Below, in pieces: positions 4,288 to 17,630 of a DNA stretch of 22,170 nt (within the stretch, counting starts at the first letter, position 1; every line of letters starts with the position of its first letter). The stretch comes from a virus. Where the stretch lies: IMG/VR virus record IMGVR_UViG_3300050821_003438, positions 1-22,170 of that record; one strand, given 5' to 3'. Position numbers and translations under genes: made by a program. The notes beneath the pieces are model-generated. The model did no database searches. It was not told where the DNA came from and saw only the letters and a program-made list of their open reading frames with translations.

Positions 4288-4847
4288 TCCTTGCCTTCCT
4301 TCCTGGCGAAATTTGCAACGACTAAAGCCTCCCCGCCCAGCGGGGAGGTTGGAGGGGTTCTTTTTTTCGGGGGTCGAAGGGGGTGTCCCCCTTCTACTGC
4401 TTCTGCTTCTGCTTCTGCTTCTACTAATAGGTCCCCTATTAGGTGCGAGCCGTTTGACCTATTAGGTAACCTATTAGGTGACCTATTAGGTTCACCCCAC
4501 CGCTTGGCGATGTGAATGCGGCCTTCCTGGCTGCGTTCAGCGTCACGGATCATTCGTCTACAGATGATGATCCCCTCGTTGTTCCTACTGAAGACCCCCA
4601 TGCTTTCAAGCTCGCGGATCAGGGGGAGCACTTGCCTCGCATCTGCTTTGCACATGCGTCCCACTTGCTTGGCTTCTGTCTCGCTCTTGCGTCGCGGCGG
4701 CAGGATCAAGTGGCCGACCGGATCAGCAACGGCCATGTTGCAAAGCATTTCCATCCACAGCCCGCGCGCCGCGAGTGAACAGGCTTGCAGGTTCAGGTCT
4801 GTTTGCCAGTCACGCCAAAAGAATTTGCCCCAATGAAATCCCTTCAT
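4284..4847 (-). CDS. phage replication-initiator-like protein (DUF1376/YdaU-like N-terminus)
   Basis: 187 aa. The N-terminus (HWGKFFWRDWQTDLNLQACS, then LAARGLWMEMLCNMA) matches the start of phage replisome-organiser or DUF1376-type proteins, which carry a winged helix that binds the phage origin. The middle (CKADARQVLPLIRELESMGV...CRRMIRD) fits the rest of that domain. The C-terminus is low complexity: PNR(S/L) repeats encoded by 12-bp iterons, then four Glu-Ala repeats, then a tail that includes a REP-like palindrome. Lambda O shows the same principle, with origin iterons inside the initiator gene. It overlaps the VRR-NUC gene and the 204-aa gene by ATGA junctions. The role as initiator is inferred. 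Confidence 0.65.
   Translation of the reverse strand: MKGFHWGKFFWRDWQTDLNLQACSLAARGLWMEMLCNMAVADPVGHLILPPRRKSETEAKQVGRMCKADARQVLPLIRELESMGVFSRNNEGIIICRRMIRDAERSQEGRIHIAKRWGEPNRSPNRLPNRSNGSHLIGDLLVEAEAEAEAVEGGHPLRPPKKRTPPTSPLGGEALVVANFARKEGKE
4328..4348. repeat. REP-like GC-rich palindrome inside the replication gene
   Basis: CCTCCCCGC, a 3-nt loop (CCA), then GCGGGGAGG: a perfect 9-bp inverted repeat. It is translated in frame as part of TSPLGGEA. Palindromes of this composition are common dispersed elements in alphaproteobacteria, so this tail may be an inserted element that stayed in frame. A T-run follows on the plus strand only after a 12-nt gap, so it is not a convincing terminator. Confidence 0.5.
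4423..4491. repeat. 12-bp iterons, candidate replication origin
   Basis: Three exact copies of ACCTATTAGGT start at 4457, 4469 and 4481 (period 12 bp), each a 5-bp inverted repeat around one base. A close copy, CCCTATTAGGT, starts at 4434 and a diverged one, ACTAATAGGT, at 4423. They encode the PNRS/PNRL peptide repeats of the replication protein. A (GAAGCA)n tract (plus strand TGCTTC, about 4397-4420) adjoins them. Iterons in an initiator gene are a classic phage origin layout. Confidence 0.6.
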
Positions 4848-5257
4848 AGGGGCTCCCTCACGCGACGGTTGCGGGGGATGTTCCAGGCATCAATACACGC
4901 CAGCACTTCTGTCGCATCGCGCGCCACGCCAGCGCGGCCGCCGGCTGCCAGGACGGCTGCAATGACTGACCGCTGCGCATCTGACAGCACGCCGTCTTCG
5001 GCTTTAATCTCGCAGACGTGGGCAAGGCCACGGTACAGCAGGAACAGGTCAGGCACGCCGGCAACAATGCCGCGCCCGATCCGCACGCCGGGGACTTCGC
5101 CGGCATAATTTGCATGATCAATGCTGAACCAGCAGACGCCGAACCGGCTGACCTTTCCAGGCGGCGCGAGTTCGATTGTAAGTGTAGAGGCAATCTGTCG
5201 CTGGAGCGGATGTTCGCGGACGACAGGCGCGGTCAGCCTGAAGGTTGACCGCTTCAT
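4844..5257 (-). CDS. VRR-NUC domain nuclease
   Basis: 137 aa from the ATG at 5257. The open frame extends upstream into the preceding gene; this ATG is preferred because it follows an AGGTGG sequence and falls just after the preceding stop at 5262. The VRR-NUC (PD-(D/E)XK-like) core is present: RGIVAGVPDLFLL at about 62-74 (D70 as the metal-binding Asp), EIKAEDG at 83-89 (the E-x-K motif) and LSDAQRSVIAAVLAAGG at 91-107. Phage VRR-NUC proteins are small stand-alone nucleases often encoded near replication genes and thought to act on branched DNA. It couples to the replication gene by an ATGA overlap. Confidence 0.8.
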   Translation of the reverse strand: MKRSTFRLTAPVVREHPLQRQIASTLTIELAPPGKVSRFGVCWFSIDHANYAGEVPGVRIGRGIVAGVPDLFLLYRGLAHVCEIKAEDGVLSDAQRSVIAAVLAAGGRAGVARDATEVLACIDAWNIPRNRRVREPL

Positions 5258-5261
5258 CCAC

Positions 5262-5558
5262 CTAGCTCGCCTGCTGACGTATGACCTTTTTAGCCTGGAC
5301 AGTGGCGCGCGGCGGGCTGCGTTCCGGCAGAAGCAAGACTTGCCCGACTGCCTGCTTGCCGTGGCGCGGATGTCCTGCGGCAAGCTGCGCCATGGTCAGG
5401 CGGATGCCCAAATCATCCGCGAGTGCGATCAGGCTGGCATAATACCCGGATGGAATGCCGAACGTGGCCCAGCGTGACACGCTGGTGCGATGCAGGCCGA
5501 GACGTTCCCCCACGTAGGTATTCCCGCCCAGGCGTTGGATGATGGCGGCGTGATCCAT
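5262..5558 (-). CDS. Cro/YdaS-like helix-turn-helix repressor
   Basis: 98 aa. The N-terminal 50 residues form a Cro/YdaS-type HTH: IIQRLGGNTYVGERLGLHRTSVSRWATFGIP, with the recognition helix at HRTSVSRWA. The C-terminal 40 residues are basic and unstructured. It is the first gene of the leftward operon and faces the rightward operon across a 250-bp control region, the normal place for a phage Cro. The second repressor lies far away, downstream of the integrase. Confidence 0.75.
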   Translation of the reverse strand: MDHAAIIQRLGGNTYVGERLGLHRTSVSRWATFGIPSGYYASLIALADDLGIRLTMAQLAAGHPRHGKQAVGQVLLLPERSPPRATVQAKKVIRQQAS

Positions 5559-6629: not shown

Positions 6630-7772
6630 ATGGCACGCGAAGCACAAGCATTGACGGTTGCGCCGCGCTACCAGAAGCCACCCGGCTTCAGCGGAACAGA
6701 CATCGCATGGCGTGCCCTCTGCGAATGCTATCCAAACGCCGAGACGCCCGAGGTCGTCATGGCTGTGATGGAATACTGCGCGGTGCGCCGGCTCGATCCT
6801 TACAAGCGGCCAGTCCATGTCGTGCCGATGTGGAACAGCCGACTTCGCCGCAAGGTGCAGGTTGTCATGCAAGGCATCAACGAGGTTGAGATAACCGCCG
6901 CACGCACACAGAAGTGGGCCGGCATGGACCTGCCAGTGTGGGGGCCTGACATCGAGCACACTTTCCGAGGCAGCTTCGAGAACGATGACGGCAGCGTGCG
7001 TGAAACCAGCATCACCATGCGCTTTCCGGCTTGGTGTGCTGTCACGGTCTACAGGATCGTTGCCGGCGAGCGCCGTGCATTCACCGAACAGTTGCATTGG
7101 ATGGAATGCTACGGGCGCGCCGGCTTCCGCAGCGAATTGCCGAACGAACGATGGACCAAGGCCCCGCGCCAGATGCTGCATAAGTGCGTCAAGTCTGCCG
7201 TTCTGCGTGCTGCCTTCCCCGAGGAAGGTCTGGACTACACCGCCGAGGAAATGGAAGGCCGAGAGACTGAGGCCGGCGGCGTCATCATCGACGGCAAGGC
7301 TGAACAGCCGGCAGACCAGACGGCGCAGGACAGGCTGGCCGATCAGGCATACGGCAGGACCGAGCAGGACGAGGCTCCAGCCGGTCCTGATCCTCTCCAG
7401 GAACAGAACGGCACCAAGTGGCTCGCGAACCTCCAGGACCTGCTGAAGCGGGCAGAGAGTGCCGCAGCCGTTGCCGACATTGGCGGACATCCAGCCGTGC
7501 GCCGCGTACTGCGGGAAGCGCCGACGACGTACCGCGCCCTGGTCAATGATGCCTTGCGAGACGCCCACCAGCGGCTGGCAGTCCAGGAAGATGACGACGG
7601 GCTGTCCGACCTGCTGGCCGAGGTTGAGGCGATGGACCTGTACAGCCTGACGAACCTTCACACCAATGCGCAATGGGTGGCCAGGATACGCAAGCTGATC
7701 CCGCCAGACGCAGACCGGCTGGACGAAGCAATCGAGGCACGCAAAGCAGCATTGAGGGGGAACGGTCAATGA
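6630..7772 (+). CDS. RecT/Bet-family single-strand annealing recombinase
   Basis: 380 aa. Residues about 20-215 match the Bet (RecT) family: VMAVMEYCAVRRLDPYKRP, the conserved IHVVPMWN-like strand (here VHVVPMWNSRLRRKVQVV), QGINEVEITAARTQKWAG, and the helix KAPRQMLHKCVKSAVLRAAFPEE. The family anneals complementary single strands during phage recombination. The C-terminal 165 residues are an acidic, partly disordered extension longer than lambda Bet (261 aa). I see no partner RecE/Exo exonuclease in this operon; the VRR-NUC protein across the control region is the only nuclease near it. Confidence 0.85.
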   Translation: MAREAQALTVAPRYQKPPGFSGTDIAWRALCECYPNAETPEVVMAVMEYCAVRRLDPYKRPVHVVPMWNSRLRRKVQVVMQGINEVEITAARTQKWAGMDLPVWGPDIEHTFRGSFENDDGSVRETSITMRFPAWCAVTVYRIVAGERRAFTEQLHWMECYGRAGFRSELPNERWTKAPRQMLHKCVKSAVLRAAFPEEGLDYTAEEMEGRETEAGGVIIDGKAEQPADQTAQDRLADQAYGRTEQDEAPAGPDPLQEQNGTKWLANLQDLLKRAESAAAVADIGGHPAVRRVLREAPTTYRALVNDALRDAHQRLAVQEDDDGLSDLLAEVEAMDLYSLTNLHTNAQWVARIRKLIPPDADRLDEAIEARKAALRGNGQ

Positions 7773-8047
7773 AGCCTAACGACAACGAGATGGCGGTACT
7801 GGGAAGGGGCATTCGTGACCTTGCCAGTCTCGCGCCACCGGCACGCCGGCGTGTCCTGGCATATTGGTGCGCGCGTGTTGATTCACTGCCAGTCATAGCC
7901 GCTGTGGGAGGGGGAACGGAAGACGACGAACAGGATTTGCCGATGATGCCATTGTTGCAAGGAGCCAAGACAGATGGCGCGACCGAAAATAACCGGGGCA
8001 GCGATACTACAGCGGGCGGTGCCGCCGCCGCAGGTCCTGCTGTCTAA
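7769..8047 (+). CDS. hypothetical protein
   Basis: 92 aa. The ATG overlaps the RecT stop (ATGA). The first half looks folded (VLGRGIRDLASLAPPARRRVLAYW); the rest is acidic and then Ala/Gly-rich. Its last 74 bp overlap the AlpA-like gene in another frame, which is a long overlap, so the C-terminus may not be under selection for this frame. Confidence 0.55.
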   Translation: MKPNDNEMAVLGRGIRDLASLAPPARRRVLAYWCARVDSLPVIAAVGGGTEDDEQDLPMMPLLQGAKTDGATENNRGSDTTAGGAAAAGPAV

Positions 8048-8240
8048 CTCGGTTGACGAAGACGACCGGCTGCTGGATGTCAAAACGCTGGTCGCGATGC
8101 TGAGTTGTTCCGAGTCATTGATTTACCGGATGATCCGCGATGGTGAATTTCCGGCGCCCATCAGGCTTGGCAAGCTGACGCGGTGGCGGCTGCGGGACTA
8201 CCGCAAGTGGATGGCTCGTTCCATCAAAAAGGGGATGTGA
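7974..8240 (+). CDS. AlpA/excisionase-like winged-helix regulator
   Basis: 88 aa with an AAGGAG Shine-Dalgarno. Residues about 32-82 match the AlpA/MerR-like excisionase family: LLDVKTLVAMLSCSESLIYRMIRDG, then FPAPIRLGKLTRWR and DYRKWMA. Proteins of this family bind DNA to assist excision or to activate integrase expression. Here it lies 8 kb from the integrase in the early operon, so a regulatory or Xis-like role is inferred. Confidence 0.8.
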   Translation: MARPKITGAAILQRAVPPPQVLLSNSVDEDDRLLDVKTLVAMLSCSESLIYRMIRDGEFPAPIRLGKLTRWRLRDYRKWMARSIKKGM

Positions 8241-8955: not shown

Positions 8956-9278
8956 TGATCCCTCGCTGTCGATGCGGACGGAAGGCAATCGCCGTCTCGC
9001 CCGGTAGCGAGGCGATCTATGCCCCTGGTCATATCCTGGTCACACGCGCCAAGCCTGCCAAGGCATGGTGCAAGCTGCACTGGCTTCCGCCGCCCCGCAC
9101 CTCAGCACCGCGCTACGCATCTCGTCTCACCGCGCCGCAACGCCTCGCAACGCCCTGCATCACCTCACAACGCCCCGCTGCGCTGCACGACACCACGCAT
9201 CGCTGCGCCACGCTTCGCTCCGCCCCGCAACTCGGCTCGACTCCCCGCAACGCAACGCCTGAAAGGAAAGTAAGATGA
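8955..9278 (+). CDS. zinc-ribbon-like small protein fused to pentamer array 1
   Basis: 107 aa. The first ~45 residues look like a real small protein with CRCGRKA near the start and WCKLHW at about 38-43, a possible zinc site. From codon 46 the frame enters pentamer array 1 and reads it as a basic five-residue quasi-repeat (for example SRLTA, PQRLA, TPRNA), because three 5-nt units equal five codons. The stop TGA overlaps the start of the next gene by 4 bp (ATGA). So the array is translated if this gene is expressed, and the ribosome ends exactly at the next start. No known family for either part. Confidence 0.55.
   Translation: MIPRCRCGRKAIAVSPGSEAIYAPGHILVTRAKPAKAWCKLHWLPPPRTSAPRYASRLTAPQRLATPCITSQRPAALHDTTHRCATLRSAPQLGSTPRNATPERKVR
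9091..9260 (+). repeat. pentamer array 1 (CNCNN, 34 units)
   Basis: 34 consecutive 5-nt units with no insertion or deletion: the triplet starts at every position 9091 + 5n. By hand count 22 triplets are CGC, 6 CTC, 5 CAC and 1 TGC. The two spacer bases are nearly free (cc, ac, ta, at, gc, aa, ct, tg and others). The array ends 15 nt before the start of the 195-aa gene, just ahead of its Shine-Dalgarno AAAGGAAAG. Confidence 0.9.
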
Positions 9279-9862
9279 AACTGTGCAAGGTCCACATCGA
9301 AGGCATCCCTGGCTCGCCATACTCACAGTCGGCGCAGCACGAGGAACCAAAGCTGGAACGTGAGTCGCATGACGACTACGACGAGCGCACTTGGCGCAGT
9401 AAATGCACAACCAATGACAAGGGACAGGTCTGCATTCCGGCCATGGCATTGAAGCAGGCTATCGATCTTGCAGCGCAGAAGCTGGGCGAGAAGATCGCAG
9501 GCAGGCGCGGTGCAACCTACAAGACGTTTTTCACCAGCGGCGTTATCTGCAATGGCGATGTGCCGATTGCCAATGGCAAGCCATTGACGCCCAAGGATGC
9601 TGCGATGGTGAAGATCAATGCCAACAGCGACGGCGTGCGCGGATCAGGTAAGCGGGTAAAGCGCCGCTTTCCGGTCTTCGACAAGTGGCATGGCATTGCC
9701 GAGTTCACCATTGTCGATGACATCGTGACGACAGAAGTGTTCGAGCACCACCTGAAGTCTGCCGGCATGATCTGCGGCATCGGACGGTATCGACCTGCAA
9801 ACGGCGGCAGCAATGGTCGCTTCCGCGTCACCAAGGTCGAATGGCAGGACATGAGCATGTAA
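9275..9862 (+). CDS. conserved phage protein of unknown function
   Basis: 195 aa with a clear AAGGAAAG Shine-Dalgarno. The N-terminal VHIEGIPGSPYSQS, a central DYDERTWRSKC, a GVRGSGKRVKRRFPVF box (about residues 122-137) and the C-terminal GIGRYRPANGGSNGRF (about 169-184) form a pattern I associate with a family recurring in tailed phages near recombination genes, but no function is known to me. The Gly/Arg-rich C-terminal loop suggests nucleic-acid binding, which is inference. It sits between pentamer arrays 1 and 2; its own codons show no period-5 pattern. Confidence 0.75.
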   Translation: MKLCKVHIEGIPGSPYSQSAQHEEPKLERESHDDYDERTWRSKCTTNDKGQVCIPAMALKQAIDLAAQKLGEKIAGRRGATYKTFFTSGVICNGDVPIANGKPLTPKDAAMVKINANSDGVRGSGKRVKRRFPVFDKWHGIAEFTIVDDIVTTEVFEHHLKSAGMICGIGRYRPANGGSNGRFRVTKVEWQDMSM

Positions 9863-9873
9863 AAGGTTTCCGC

Positions 9874-10013
9874 CGCCGCGCCGCGCTCTGCAACGCTCCA
9901 CTCCGCATCGCGTCTCGCCGCGTCGCCGCGCTTCGCATCGCTTCGCTCCGAGTCTTGGCGCACCGCGCCGCATCGCCCCGCTCCGCATCGCCGTGCCTCG
10001 CATCGCAACGCAA
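9874..10013 (+). repeat. pentamer array 2 (CNCNN, 28 units)
   Basis: 28 uninterrupted units at 9874 + 5n: 22 CGC, and single or double variants TGC (2), CAC, CTC, CGA and CTT. It begins 11 bp after the previous stop and ends 22 bp before the next start, with GAAGGAACG Shine-Dalgarno between. An ORF in the +1 frame (from an ATG at 9841 inside the previous gene to the TGA at 10036-10038) crosses the whole array and stops on the next start codon (ATGA). Confidence 0.9.
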
Positions 10014-10034
10014 TGGTTTCAGAAGGAACGAACT

Positions 10035-10544
10035 ATGAAGGCTTATGAACGGTCGGAAGTGACCAGCAGTCTTGTCCGGTATCTGTCGCAGCATGATAAG
10101 GGGACGCGCATCCCCTATGATGAACTGACCAAGGTGGCCGGCATCAGCGTGACATCACGCACGACCTATTTGACATCGGCCCGCAAGATACTGGAGCGTG
10201 ACCACGCCCAGGTGTGGATATGCATCATGCCGAAGGTCTGTATATACCGGCTGAATGATCCCGAGATTGCAGACCGGCAACGCAATTGGTTCCTATACGG
10301 TGCAAGGAATAAGCTGGTGGCAGGATCACGACAGGCCGATGTCGTTGAACTGGACAACCTGGACCTGACGCAACAGGCACGCTTCGCAACTGACAGCATC
10401 ATCCGCGAGATTGCCGGCGAAGCCTTGGCACGCGCGACCAGACGGAAGGTCGAGAAGGTTGCGCGCGGCTCATCCAATGATCTGCCGTCATTCAATGCTG
10501 TCGAATGGATGATCAGCCTATCGCCACGAAGGGCTGCCAAATGA
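10035..10544 (+). CDS. winged-helix-like hypothetical protein
   Basis: 169 aa from the ATG at 10035 behind GAAGGAACG; an open extension into array 2 lacks a comparable start. The first 85 residues look like a winged helix (SLVRYLSQHDKGTRIPYDEL, then VTSRTTYLTSARKILERD as likely recognition helix, then a strand-rich wing with ICIMPKVCIYRL). The rest is helical and basic. A DNA-binding role is inferred. Confidence 0.65.
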   Translation: MKAYERSEVTSSLVRYLSQHDKGTRIPYDELTKVAGISVTSRTTYLTSARKILERDHAQVWICIMPKVCIYRLNDPEIADRQRNWFLYGARNKLVAGSRQADVVELDNLDLTQQARFATDSIIREIAGEALARATRRKVEKVARGSSNDLPSFNAVEWMISLSPRRAAK

Positions 10545-10780
10545 ACCACGACGCCGCGCCTCGCGACGCCACGCTGCACTTCGCGCCTCGTCGCAACGTT
10601 TCGCAGCGCAACGCTTCTCCCCGCTGCGCAACGCCCCGCCCCGCTACGCTACGTTCCTCGGCGCAGCACTTCTCTCCGCATCGCCCCGCGCCGCATCGCA
10701 ACTCCTCGCGCCGCGTCGCACCTCGTCGCAACGCTACGCCGCACCCCGCAACGCATCGCCTGGGAGGAAGCCATGACTGA
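10541..10780 (+). CDS. possible array-encoded peptide (array 3)
   Basis: 79 codons. The ATG overlaps the stop of the previous gene (ATGA), and the frame then runs through all of array 3 and stops at 10778-10780, 8 nt past the next start at 10773. The product would be a basic His/Arg/Pro/Ala-rich peptide with no fold. It may exist only as a consequence of the array being stop-free, so translation itself rather than the peptide may matter. Not a recognisable protein. Confidence 0.3.
   Translation: MNHDAAPRDATLHFAPRRNVSQRNASPRCATPRPATLRSSAQHFSPHRPAPHRNSSRRVAPRRNATPHPATHRLGGSHD
10547..10761 (+). repeat. pentamer array 3 (CNCNN, 43 units)
   Basis: The longest array: 43 uninterrupted units at 10547 + 5n, with 31 CGC, 6 CTC, 4 CAC and 2 CGT by hand count. 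It fills the gap between the 169-aa and 91-aa genes and ends 12 nt before the next ATG, immediately ahead of GGGAGGA. Confidence 0.9.
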
Positions 10781-11048
10781 TCGTGTATCAGGTGGCGTCG
10801 GTTCCAACATCAAGCAGCCATCCGATACGCCGCAGGCAGACCGGGTGGAACAGGACGAATTCGCCCTTCTGGCCAATGAATACCGCTCGCGAGCCGCCCG
10901 GTTTCGCGAAAGCGCCGATGCCTTCCGGCTGACTGGCCGGCCATCCCTTGCCATCAGATACGAGACACGCGCCTGGGTCGCTGCGCAGGCTGGACTCTTC
11001 TGTGAACAGAAGCTGGAGGAAATACGACGTGAGCGTGAAGCAGGTTGA
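10773..11048 (+). CDS. helical hypothetical protein
   Basis: 91 aa with a strong GGGAGGA Shine-Dalgarno directly after array 3. A disordered first 25 residues is followed by an Arg/Ala-rich helical hairpin (LLANEYRSRAARFRESADAF and RYETRAWVAAQAGLFCEQKL). Probably an oligomerising coiled-coil protein. No family recognised. Confidence 0.65.
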   Translation: MTDRVSGGVGSNIKQPSDTPQADRVEQDEFALLANEYRSRAARFRESADAFRLTGRPSLAIRYETRAWVAAQAGLFCEQKLEEIRREREAG

Positions 11049-11166
11049 ATTCGCCCTGGCGCATCCGGTCTTCGATCCACAACGTCAGATCGTGGCCGGT
11101 CATTACTGGTGGATCGGTAGTTCCAGTATCAGCGCATGCCTAAGTTGTAACATCGGAATGGAATGA
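11029..11166 (+). CDS. small hypothetical protein
   Basis: 45 aa from the GTG at 11029 with GGAGGA 8 nt upstream; it overlaps the end of the preceding gene by 20 bp. Contains GHYWWIGSSSISACLSC. Function unknown. Confidence 0.45.
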   Translation: MSVKQVEFALAHPVFDPQRQIVAGHYWWIGSSSISACLSCNIGME

Positions 11167-11276
11167 ACGCGCTACGCTGGTGGACGCCCGCTATGGCAAC
11201 TGTCGCTAAGTCATCAGCGGCGCGGCAAGCCGGCCCCAGTGCTCAGTTGGAGCCTGAAGATGCATCGCGAGATTGA
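11163..11276 (+). CDS. very small hypothetical protein
   Basis: 37 aa, coupled by an ATGA overlap to the previous stop and overlapping the next gene start by 17 bp. MNALRWWTPAM start, then Ala/Ser-rich. Support comes only from the overlap geometry. Confidence 0.35.
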   Translation: MNALRWWTPAMATVAKSSAARQAGPSAQLEPEDASRD

Positions 11277-11460
11277 AGCTGCACGAGATCGGATATTCGC
11301 CCGCTGCGGGACGGATGAACCGCTTTACGAGTCAGGTCCTGATGAATGGCCGCTGGGCCATATGCCGGTCACGCGGCAATGGCGCAAGCCGTTGACCATC
11401 ACTGAAGTGGCGCGCATGGCCCCTACGGTTGAAGTACGCGCACGACAGGGCAGACCGTGA
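11260..11460 (+). CDS. small hypothetical protein
   Basis: 66 aa from the ATG at 11260 with TTGGAG upstream. It starts with a helix (REIEAARDRIFARCG) and contains YESGPDEWPLGH. The last codons lead straight into pentamer array 4, and a GTG overlapping its stop opens the frame that crosses the array. Not recognised. Confidence 0.55.
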   Translation: MHREIEAARDRIFARCGTDEPLYESGPDEWPLGHMPVTRQWRKPLTITEVARMAPTVEVRARQGRP

Positions 11461-11473
11461 AAGGTCTGCCCAT

Positions 11474-11588
11474 ACGTTGCGTTGCGTCGAGGGGCGTGGC
11501 GCTGAGACGCGTTGCGAAGCGATGCGGGGCGCTGCGGAGAGTGGCGGCGCGTCGCGGGGCGCGGCGATGCGTGGCAGGGCGCGGCGTT
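11474..11588 (-). repeat. pentamer array 4 (inverted: GNGNN on plus strand, 23 units)
   Basis: 23 uninterrupted units at 11474 + 5n on the plus strand, 18 GCG, 3 GAG, 1 ACG and 1 GCA. This is the same element as arrays 1-3 on the opposite strand: GCG and GAG are the complements of CGC and CTC. It ends 55 bp before the start of the 86-aa gene. Confidence 0.85.
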
Positions 11589-16149: not shown

Positions 16150-16335
16150 ATGAAGACCATCACCACAGCAGTTTCTGCCATCGAGCGCAAGGTTCGTGAC
16201 TCGCTGGCATTGTTGCAGGAAGTGCCGGCTCCCGTCTTGCGGTTGCCGGTCATATCGCATGAAGACGTTCTGCACATTCTGGATTGCGAAATGCCGGCAT
16301 CGTGCGAAACTTGCATCAGGAGGGCCGCGCGATGA
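16150..16335 (+). CDS. small cysteine-containing hypothetical protein
   Basis: 61 aa from the ATG at 16150 with AAGGA upstream. Helical first half (VSAIERKVRDSLALLQEV), and a C-terminal DCEMPASCETCIRR with three cysteines. ATGA overlap with the integrase suggests co-translation and perhaps a role as an integrase partner. Not recognised. Confidence 0.55.
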   Translation: MKTITTAVSAIERKVRDSLALLQEVPAPVLRLPVISHEDVLHILDCEMPASCETCIRRAAR

Positions 16336-17630
16336 GCAAAGGATCAGACGTTAACCTGCGTGCCAGGAACGCCAAGGCACCGTCCAGAGTGTCCTTCAAC
16401 GACTACTGCGGCGGACTGTTCCTGAACACCAGCAAGGCCGGAACCAAGTCATGGCGTGTCGGCTATTTCTTCAACCGGCAATTCCGCATGGCGGTGCTCG
16501 GCTACTATCCCGAGATGACGCCAAGCGAAGCCAGGACCGCACGGCTGGACATCCGCGCCAAGGTCAGCGCGGGCGTCGATCCTGTCCTGGCGCAACGGGT
16601 CCAGAAGGCAGCCACGATGGCCAAGCAGGGCAACACGGTGAAGCTGGTAGCGGCTGACTGGCTGGCATGGGGCAAGTCGAAAGGCGGCGGCGGCTGGTCG
16701 GACAACTACACGCCCCAGGTTGAACGCCGGCTGGCAAAGCATGTCTTCCCGAAGATTGGCGACCTGCCGGTTGCCATGGTCACCGAACAGGACATCAAGG
16801 GAGTCATTGACCGGCTGGAAAAGGAACTCGATCAGCATGCGCAGGCGGTCCATGTCAGGCAGCACCTGCAATGCCTGTTCGACTACGCACGCGACCACAA
16901 GTTCGTTCCCGAGAACATTGTCAGGACCATCGGTCGTTGGCTGCCGCAACGGAAGCGCGGCGACGTGCGTGAAAAGAAACAGCCGCGCGTCGGGACCATC
17001 GAGGAAGCAAGGCAGGTCTTGCAAGCCATGGAGGCCGCGACTGCAAGCCCCTTCCTGAAGCTCGCGCATCGGCTGATTGCCTTAACAGCGGTTCGCAAGA
17101 TGGAAGCGGTGGACGCGACCTGGAGCGAGTTTGACGAGGCAATGAAGACCTGGACCATACCGGGCGAACGGATGAAGGGCCGGCGCGGACACAAGGAGGA
17201 CCATGTGATCCCGCTGACCTTCCAGGCATTGCAGGTCTTCCAGGCGGCTCGCGCCCTGGCTGACGTTCAAGGCATCAAATCGGAAAGGGTTTTTCCGGTC
17301 ATGAATCGCACGTCGCTCAACGACATGATGGAACGGGTCCTTCCCCGCATCGGTCTTGACGGCAAGCATACTCTCCACGGGTGGCGTGGAACCTTCTCGA
17401 CAATCCAGAACACGGAGGACCCTGGAGCCGAGATGCTGATCGAAGTGATGCTGGCGCATCGAACCAAGTCATATGTCGCCAGTCGCTATGACGACTCGAA
17501 ACACCTTGCAGCGCGGCTGGAGATCGCGCGCAAGTGGGCTGACAAGTTACTCGACGGCATGCCTTCAGCCTTCCAGGTTGCCGGCATCAAGCAGCAAGGC
17601 AACGTCGTGCCATTCCGGCAGGTTGCCTGA
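16332..17630 (+). CDS. int: tyrosine-type (P4-like) integrase
   Basis: 432 aa from the ATG at 16332, coupled to the upstream gene by ATGA. The N-terminus has the arm-type DUF4102 domain (GGLFLNTSKAGTKSWRVGYF, then LGYYPEMTPSEARTARL). The core-binding domain spans about 105-200. The catalytic set is complete by my count: Arg255 (TAVRKMEA), His349 and Arg352 (LHGWRGTFST), His376 (LAHRTKS) and the nucleophile Tyr386 (ASRYDDS). It integrates and, with an accessory factor, excises the phage genome by site-specific recombination. No tRNA gene or att core is evident beside it. Confidence 0.92.
   Translation: MSKGSDVNLRARNAKAPSRVSFNDYCGGLFLNTSKAGTKSWRVGYFFNRQFRMAVLGYYPEMTPSEARTARLDIRAKVSAGVDPVLAQRVQKAATMAKQGNTVKLVAADWLAWGKSKGGGGWSDNYTPQVERRLAKHVFPKIGDLPVAMVTEQDIKGVIDRLEKELDQHAQAVHVRQHLQCLFDYARDHKFVPENIVRTIGRWLPQRKRGDVREKKQPRVGTIEEARQVLQAMEAATASPFLKLAHRLIALTAVRKMEAVDATWSEFDEAMKTWTIPGERMKGRRGHKEDHVIPLTFQALQVFQAARALADVQGIKSERVFPVMNRTSLNDMMERVLPRIGLDGKHTLHGWRGTFSTIQNTEDPGAEMLIEVMLAHRTKSYVASRYDDSKHLAARLEIARKWADKLLDGMPSAFQVAGIKQQGNVVPFRQVA

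What the first reader, a model, noticed from the sequence alone, without database searches (positions are those of the whole stretch)
9091..11588. Four arrays of an indel-free degenerate pentamer (CNCNN)
In 2.5 kb of the early operon, four gene leaders consist of a strict 5-nt period: 34, 28, 43 and 23 units. By hand count, 128 units include 93 exact CGC and 119 with C at triplet positions 1 and 3, while the two spacer bases are close to free. Not one phase slip occurs within any array. Slippage-grown microsatellites normally show indels and identical units; here the frame is rigid and the spacer diverges, which suggests the period and the C-N-C triplet are selected. A known parallel for triplet-plus-2-nt spacing is the (G/U)AGNN RNA target of the TRAP protein; this is only an analogy. 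CpG placed every half helical turn in DNA is the alternative. Each array ends 12-55 nt before a gene start. I know no named element like it.
Basis: seen in the sequence. Interest (0 to 1): 0.9.

Follow-up and report, generated by a model that had tools for sequence, protein, structure and literature searches.

The report
Phage guide-RNA arrays with gapped code
The strict five-base repeats are guide-RNA arrays of a VIPR system, a phage relative of CRISPR described in a 2026 preprint, here with the spelling C-N-C instead of GGY; the two 'free' bases of each unit carry the target address, read with one base skipped in the target.

Summary
The arrays are real and far beyond chance, with two corrections: the fourth has 22 units, not 23, and lies on the minus strand, so it is not a gene leader. 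They surround gene 9275-9862. Its homologs' profile has one hit in the whole PDB, SUSP1 Vipr (E=1.8e-8), and its AlphaFold model (pLDDT 94.6) matches CRISPR RAMP proteins (Cas7/Csm3). The next gene is homologous to SUSP1 vap1. In loci fetched by the Vipr protein alone, 80 of 85 carry C-N-C/NN arrays beside vipr (301 near, 1 far). The NN pairs read with a one-base skip in the target match other phages' genes far more often than other skips, reversed guides or shuffled guides. So this is a VIPR locus with CNC/NN repeats (CAC or CGA in relatives) instead of the published GGY/NN. One window guide (array 4) matches a close relative's VIPR locus at 19 of 20 positions; another phage's guide matches the window at 20 of 20. 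The preprint mentions an unseen 'related consensus', so how new the CNC spelling is remains open. No expression data exist.

The parts
9091..9260 (+). array 1, 34 CNC/NN units, upstream of vipr
   Evidence: ends CGCAACGCAACGCCT 14 nt before the vipr ATG
9275..9862 (+). vipr homolog, 195 aa RAMP (Cas7-like) protein
   Evidence: only PDB hit SUSP1 Vipr, E=1.8e-8; pLDDT 94.6; Foldseek: CRISPR type VII Cas7, Csm3
9874..10013 (+). array 2, 28 units, between vipr and vap
   Evidence: degenerate units CGAGT CTTGG at units 16-17 may divide two guides (inference)
10035..10544 (+). vap (accessory) homolog, 169 aa, probable winged-helix DNA-binding protein
   Evidence: homolog in 144 loci, 141 with vipr; SUSP1 vap1 E=6.2e-6; fold matches weak
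10547..10761 (+). array 3, 43 units, starts at the vap stop codon; a block of about 13 units is shared with relative L021
10773..11048 (+). small ORF (91 aa) after array 3, function unknown, found in only 3 loci
11477..11586 (-). array 4, 22 units, opposite strand; units 9-18 match relative L021/L141 with a one-base skip (19/20)
11448..11471 (-). 9-bp hairpin directly 3' of array 4, candidate structured tail
   Evidence: MFE -23.9, z=-4.2
11136..11165 (+). window's own copy of the site that array 4 matches in L021; own copy 17/20
5094..5123 (+). site in the window matched 20/20 by a guide of another phage (L066); lies in a VRR-NUC-like gene (4844-5383, minus strand)

Best explanation
The locus is a VIPR (Viral Interference Programmable Repeat) system of an uncultivated, probably temperate phage: vipr (RAMP) + vap + vrRNA arrays. 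Each array is transcribed into an RNA whose C-N-C triplets are held by successive Vipr subunits, while each NN pair is presented to the target. DNA is recognised by successive NN pairs separated by ONE skipped target base, usually the codon wobble position. A guide is about 10-14 units followed by 2-4 constant terminal units (CGCAA CGCAA CG); arrays of 22-43 units appear to be several guides fused or overlapping. Targets are genes of competing related phages, often their own VIPR loci; the likely outcome is transcriptional repression, as shown for SUSP1. Shown here: protein homology, association, predicted fold, code statistics, candidate targets. Inferred: expression, RNP formation, C-N-C contacts, repression.
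For: Vipr: an HMM without SUSP1 finds SUSP1 Vipr, E=1.7e-11; the profile against the whole PDB gives that chain only; predicted fold matches Cas7/Csm3. Vap: E=6.2e-6 to SUSP1 vap1. Association: 80/85 Vipr-fetched loci have arrays within 1.5 kb on the same strand, 301 arrays near vs 1 far. Code: guides with hits scoring >=19: 8 observed vs mean 0.2, max 1 in 20 unit-shuffles; in the larger set, guides scoring >=18: 17 for skip 1 vs 1, 2, 1, 0 for skips 0, 2, 3, 4. Skip base at codon position 3 for 13 of 20 guides. Many of the best hits start at unit 0 of the array. Targets in rival VIPR loci: L170->L048, L173->L172, L158->L151/L126, window array 4->L021. Mechanism model: PMC13142463.
Against: The triplet is CNC, not the published GGY. 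Arrays 1-3 lack the structured 3' tail of SUSP1 vrRNAs, and 22-43 units exceed the published 9-16. Arrays 1-3 have no convincing target in IMG/VR at the seeds tried. The window's array-4 hit uses units 9-18, not the 5' end, and has one mismatch. Several hits come from related phages, so they are not fully independent. No RNA data.
Confidence: 0.9

Rival explanations
1. The arrays are protein-binding leaders: Vipr or another protein coats C-N-C RNA in its own mRNA leaders and regulates translation (TRAP-like autoregulation), with no guide function.
For: Arrays 1-3 sit directly upstream of vipr, vap and a third gene, 11-21 nt before the start codons.
Against: NN pairs match other phages' genes with a specific one-base skip; array 4 is antisense and not a leader; NN vary almost freely while the C's do not. 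Autoregulation could coexist with guiding.
Confidence: 0.05
2. DNA element: CpG every half helical turn, or a binding array for a DNA protein (partition, packaging, nucleoid).
For: High CpG content; period 5.
Against: In relatives the triplet is CAC or CGA, which removes or moves the CpG while the 5-nt period stays; arrays are tied to a RAMP gene; guide matches.
Confidence: 0.02
3. Slippage-grown microsatellite or assembly artefact.
For: Tandem period.
Against: No indels, near-maximal entropy at two of five positions, many independent assemblies with the same feature beside the same gene.
Confidence: 0.01

Closest known systems
VIPR system of Escherichia phage SUSP1 (type II; PMC13142463, PDB 36pp)
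   Same: RAMP gene homologous over its C-terminal part, vap1 homolog as next gene, arrays upstream and downstream, pentamer units of triplet + hypervariable NN on the vipr strand, one-base-skip matching to rival mobile elements
   Different: triplet CNC (CGC) instead of GGY; arrays 22-43 units instead of 9-16; one array inverted; arrays 1-3 without structured tail; constant CGCAA CGCAA end; CGC-group Viprs separated from the GGC Viprs by a long branch
CRISPR class 1 effectors (Csm3, Cas7, type VII Cas7)
   Same: RAMP fold; RNA-guided recognition
   Different: no CRISPR repeats or spacers, no cas genes found, guide not contiguous, period 5 rather than 6
TRAP and its (G/U)AGNN RNA targets
   Same: triplet + 2 nt spacing in RNA read by a repeated protein
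   Different: no homologous protein found; spacers carry target information; up to 43 units

Membership tests
VIPR | Vipr protein of the RAMP fold | tested here: met
VIPR | vap accessory gene beside vipr | tested here: met
   homologous to SUSP1 vap1, E=6.2e-6; 141 of its 144 loci also have vipr
VIPR | tandem pentamer arrays, constant triplet alternating with hypervariable NN, beside vipr | tested here: met
VIPR | triplet is GGY (or a related consensus, fig. S17, not readable here) | tested here: inconclusive
   GGY not met: CGC 73%, CTC 13%, CAC 8% in the window; SUSP1 GGT and distant alphaproteobacterial relatives GGC seen with the same method; the paper allows a 'related consensus'
VIPR | 9-16 repeats per vrRNA | tested here: inconclusive
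   commonest array lengths in relatives 10-16; window arrays 22-43, probably fused guides
VIPR | structured 3' tail | tested here: inconclusive
   hairpin after array 4 only
VIPR | one-base-skip recognition of competing mobile elements | tested here: met
   computational only:
VIPR | vrRNA expressed and bound by Vipr; target repression | not testable with these tools
   needs wet-lab work
CRISPR-Cas | identical repeats with contiguous spacers; cas1/cas2 or Cas effector genes | tested here: not met
TRAP-regulated leader | TRAP (MtrB) gene and (G/U)AGNN units | tested here: not met
   units are CNCNN; no Pfam, NCBIfam or PADLOC hit for the neighbouring genes tested

The most novel reading that the evidence does not exclude
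This is a VIPR clade outside the published set with its own scaffold spelling. Within it the middle base, and once the third base, has changed repeatedly (CGC, CAC, CGA) while the 5-nt frame and the one-base-skip code stay fixed. Several guides are fused into indel-free arrays that double as mRNA leaders and are aimed at rival VIPR loci.
Probability: 0.45. Interest if true: 0.85.

Novelty: new variant of a known kind. Interest (0 to 1): 0.75.

Why it matters
It is independent computational support for a new RNA-guided code in a clade with a different repeat triplet, so the code does not depend on GGY. The clade is practically absent from 50,697 deposited phage records by the three Vipr queries tried, yet common in uncultivated phages. 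It shows phages aiming at each other's VIPR loci and offers a natural set (GGY, CGC, CAC, CGA) for learning how Vipr reads its scaffold.

Tried and rejected
Rfam on ten loci: no hit, so no known hammerhead there. Pfam, NCBIfam, PADLOC: nothing for vipr or vap; PHROG gives only unknown family 4652. Promoter and terminator scans at chance level. Exact seeds of eight or more units from arrays 1, 2 and 3 in IMG/VR gave no convincing target. A seed from array 4 found L306 with 20/20, but about one such seed hit is expected by chance (my arithmetic) and its skip is not at the wobble position, so I give it no weight; L306 and L226-L305 were fetched with window guides, so window hits in them are circular (the clean tests are). 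Shared array-3 guide against 385 alphaproteobacterial genomes: chance level. Skip-3 hits were homologous arrays not fully masked and nearly vanished with stricter masking. Fold search of vap: only weak DNA-binding-domain matches. No CNC-clade Vipr in phage or plasmid collections beyond one weak Pseudomonas phage hit.

Full report
OBSERVATION. The window (a whole IMG/VR virus record of 22,170 bp) holds four indel-free arrays: + 9091-9260 (34 units), + 9874-10013 (28), + 10547-10761 (43) and minus 11477-11586 (22). Scores of 88-163 compare with a maximum of 20 in resampled sequence. Positions 1 and 3 are nearly fixed C (entropy 0.20 and 0.23 bits), position 2 is mostly G (0.95), positions 4 and 5 are near maximal entropy (1.97, 1.98).

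SPREAD. Most fetched loci hold several arrays, mostly on one strand, separated by short constant spacers or by genes. A gene like window 9275-9862 was found in 78 of 122 loci, although many are fragments (the set includes SUSP1 itself).

THE NEIGHBOURING PROTEIN. A phmmer search of this 195-aa protein against the PDB gave SUSP1 Vipr as a weak lead (E=0.025). This led to PMC13142463, which describes VIPR: a RAMP protein, a vap gene, and vrRNAs made of GGY triplets alternating with NN pairs, recognising DNA with a one-nucleotide skip. I then tested membership. A profile of homologs that excludes SUSP1 finds the SUSP1 vipr ORF at E=1.7e-11. Alignment A1 against the whole PDB returns that chain only (E=1.8e-8). 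AlphaFold2 gives pLDDT 94.6, and Foldseek returns 140 matches with E below 1e-3; the 50 listed are CRISPR effector entries headed by type VII complexes and Csm. The second gene (10035-10544) belongs to a family present in 144 loci, 141 of them with vipr, and its profile finds SUSP1 vap1 at E=6.2e-6.

ASSOCIATION WITHOUT CIRCULARITY. Loci fetched by the Vipr protein alone carry CNC arrays within 1.5 kb on the vipr strand in 80 of 85 cases; there are 301 arrays in 235 kb near vipr and 1 in 570 kb further away.

THE CODE. For 469 distinct arrays I took the NN pairs and searched all fetched loci (arrays masked) with gaps of 0-4 bases between pairs. With a gap of one base there is a clear excess: guides with a hit scoring >=17 number 16, against 1, 3, 9 and 4 for gaps of 0, 2, 3, 4 and 1-3 for reversed or complemented guides; the gap-3 hits were incompletely masked homologous arrays and fall to one with stricter masking. 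Shuffling the unit order leaves a mean of 0.2 guides at score >=19 (maximum 1 in 20 shuffles) against 8 observed. Many of the best hits begin at unit 0 of the array and run 10-14 units, leaving the last units (often CGCAA CGCAA) unmatched; I read these as a constant 3' handle (inference). For one hit per guide, the skipped base is at codon position 3 in 13 of 20, as the paper reports for GGY systems. Some guides come from related phages and are not independent.

TARGETS. Several guides hit the VIPR loci of other phages: L170 hits L048/L172 about 1.4 kb downstream of the vipr start, L173 hits L172 about 1.8 kb downstream, L158 hits the vap side of L151 and L126, and an L124 guide matches its own vipr gene at 22/24. 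For the window: array 4 units 9-18 match 19/20 in relative L021/L141 (vipr 93% identical) at L021:8130-8159, downstream of L021's vap, with skips at the wobble positions of the ORF that starts at GTG 11029 in the window; the window's own copy matches 17/20. By my arithmetic about 0.03 such hits are expected for all window guides in the loci searched. In reverse, a guide of phage L066 matches the window at 5094-5123 (20/20), inside a VRR-NUC-like gene, and the same gene in L021 and, with 9 units, L168. Arrays 1-3 have no convincing target yet.

EVOLUTION. Between the window and L021 the flanking genes are 84-86% identical, but arrays 1, 2 and 4 are no more alike in NN than shuffled units. Array 3 shares a block of about 13 units in register: over 37 aligned units position 1 is identical in 37, position 3 in 35, positions 4 and 5 in 17 and 20. 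In L142 one 13-unit block occurs twice in tandem, so long arrays are probably fused guides. Calling triplets without presupposing them gives CGC in 139 Vipr loci, CAC in 6, CGA in 1, and GGT in SUSP1 and GGC in distant alphaproteobacterial relatives. On the tree CAC appears several separate times inside the CGC group, and the CGC group is separated from the GGC Viprs by a long branch. The CAC cases argue against the CpG hypothesis.

DIFFERENCES FROM PUBLISHED VIPR. The triplet, the longer arrays, one inverted array, and no structured tail after arrays 1-3 (array 4 is followed by a 9-bp hairpin). The preprint says the types use GGY/NN 'or a related consensus (fig. S17)', which I could not read, so I call this a new variant rather than a new kind. 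The CNC clade is known here from uncultivated phages and a few bacterial genomes (Roseomonas MAG, Hyphomicrobiales MAG, an alphaproteobacterial MAG, Ancylobacter); Rhizobium leguminosarum Vaf-46 has the protein but only one weak array. Three Vipr queries found none in 50,697 deposited phage records apart from one weak Pseudomonas phage hit. In 385 alphaproteobacterial genomes 4 had a Vipr match.

VERDICT. VIPR membership is well supported; the guide code is supported statistically; expression, RNA binding and repression in this clade are inferred from SUSP1.

Noticed in passing
window 11164-11166; L021:8158-8160: An in-frame TGA splits an otherwise continuous frame (11029-11460). The same TGA is in relative L021, and substitutions favour codon position 3 on both sides (15 of 31 before, 40 of 62 after), with no ATG, GTG or TTG for about 70 nt after it: possible read-through or unusual restart.
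   Followed up: partly
L139:8004-8048 (EBPR siphovirus 2, JF412297): A 9-unit CNC array between gp59 and gp60 of a deposited phage record, with no Vipr found nearby: perhaps a stand-alone guide.
   Followed up: partly
L189, about 130 nt upstream of vipr: Array with triplet CGA instead of CNC.
   Followed up: partly
L023, L104, L134, L148 spacers between arrays: Clade-specific, apparently structured spacers recur after each array; no Rfam match in L023, L104 or L134.
   Followed up: no
L124:2854-2889: An L124 guide matches its own vipr gene at 22/24: self-targeting, autoregulation or a guide against a sister phage.
   Followed up: no
window 6630-7772, 7974-8240, 16284-17630, 749-1420: RecT-like annealing protein, AlpA-like excisionase, tyrosine integrase and ParB-like protein: the window looks like a temperate phage.
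   Followed up: partly
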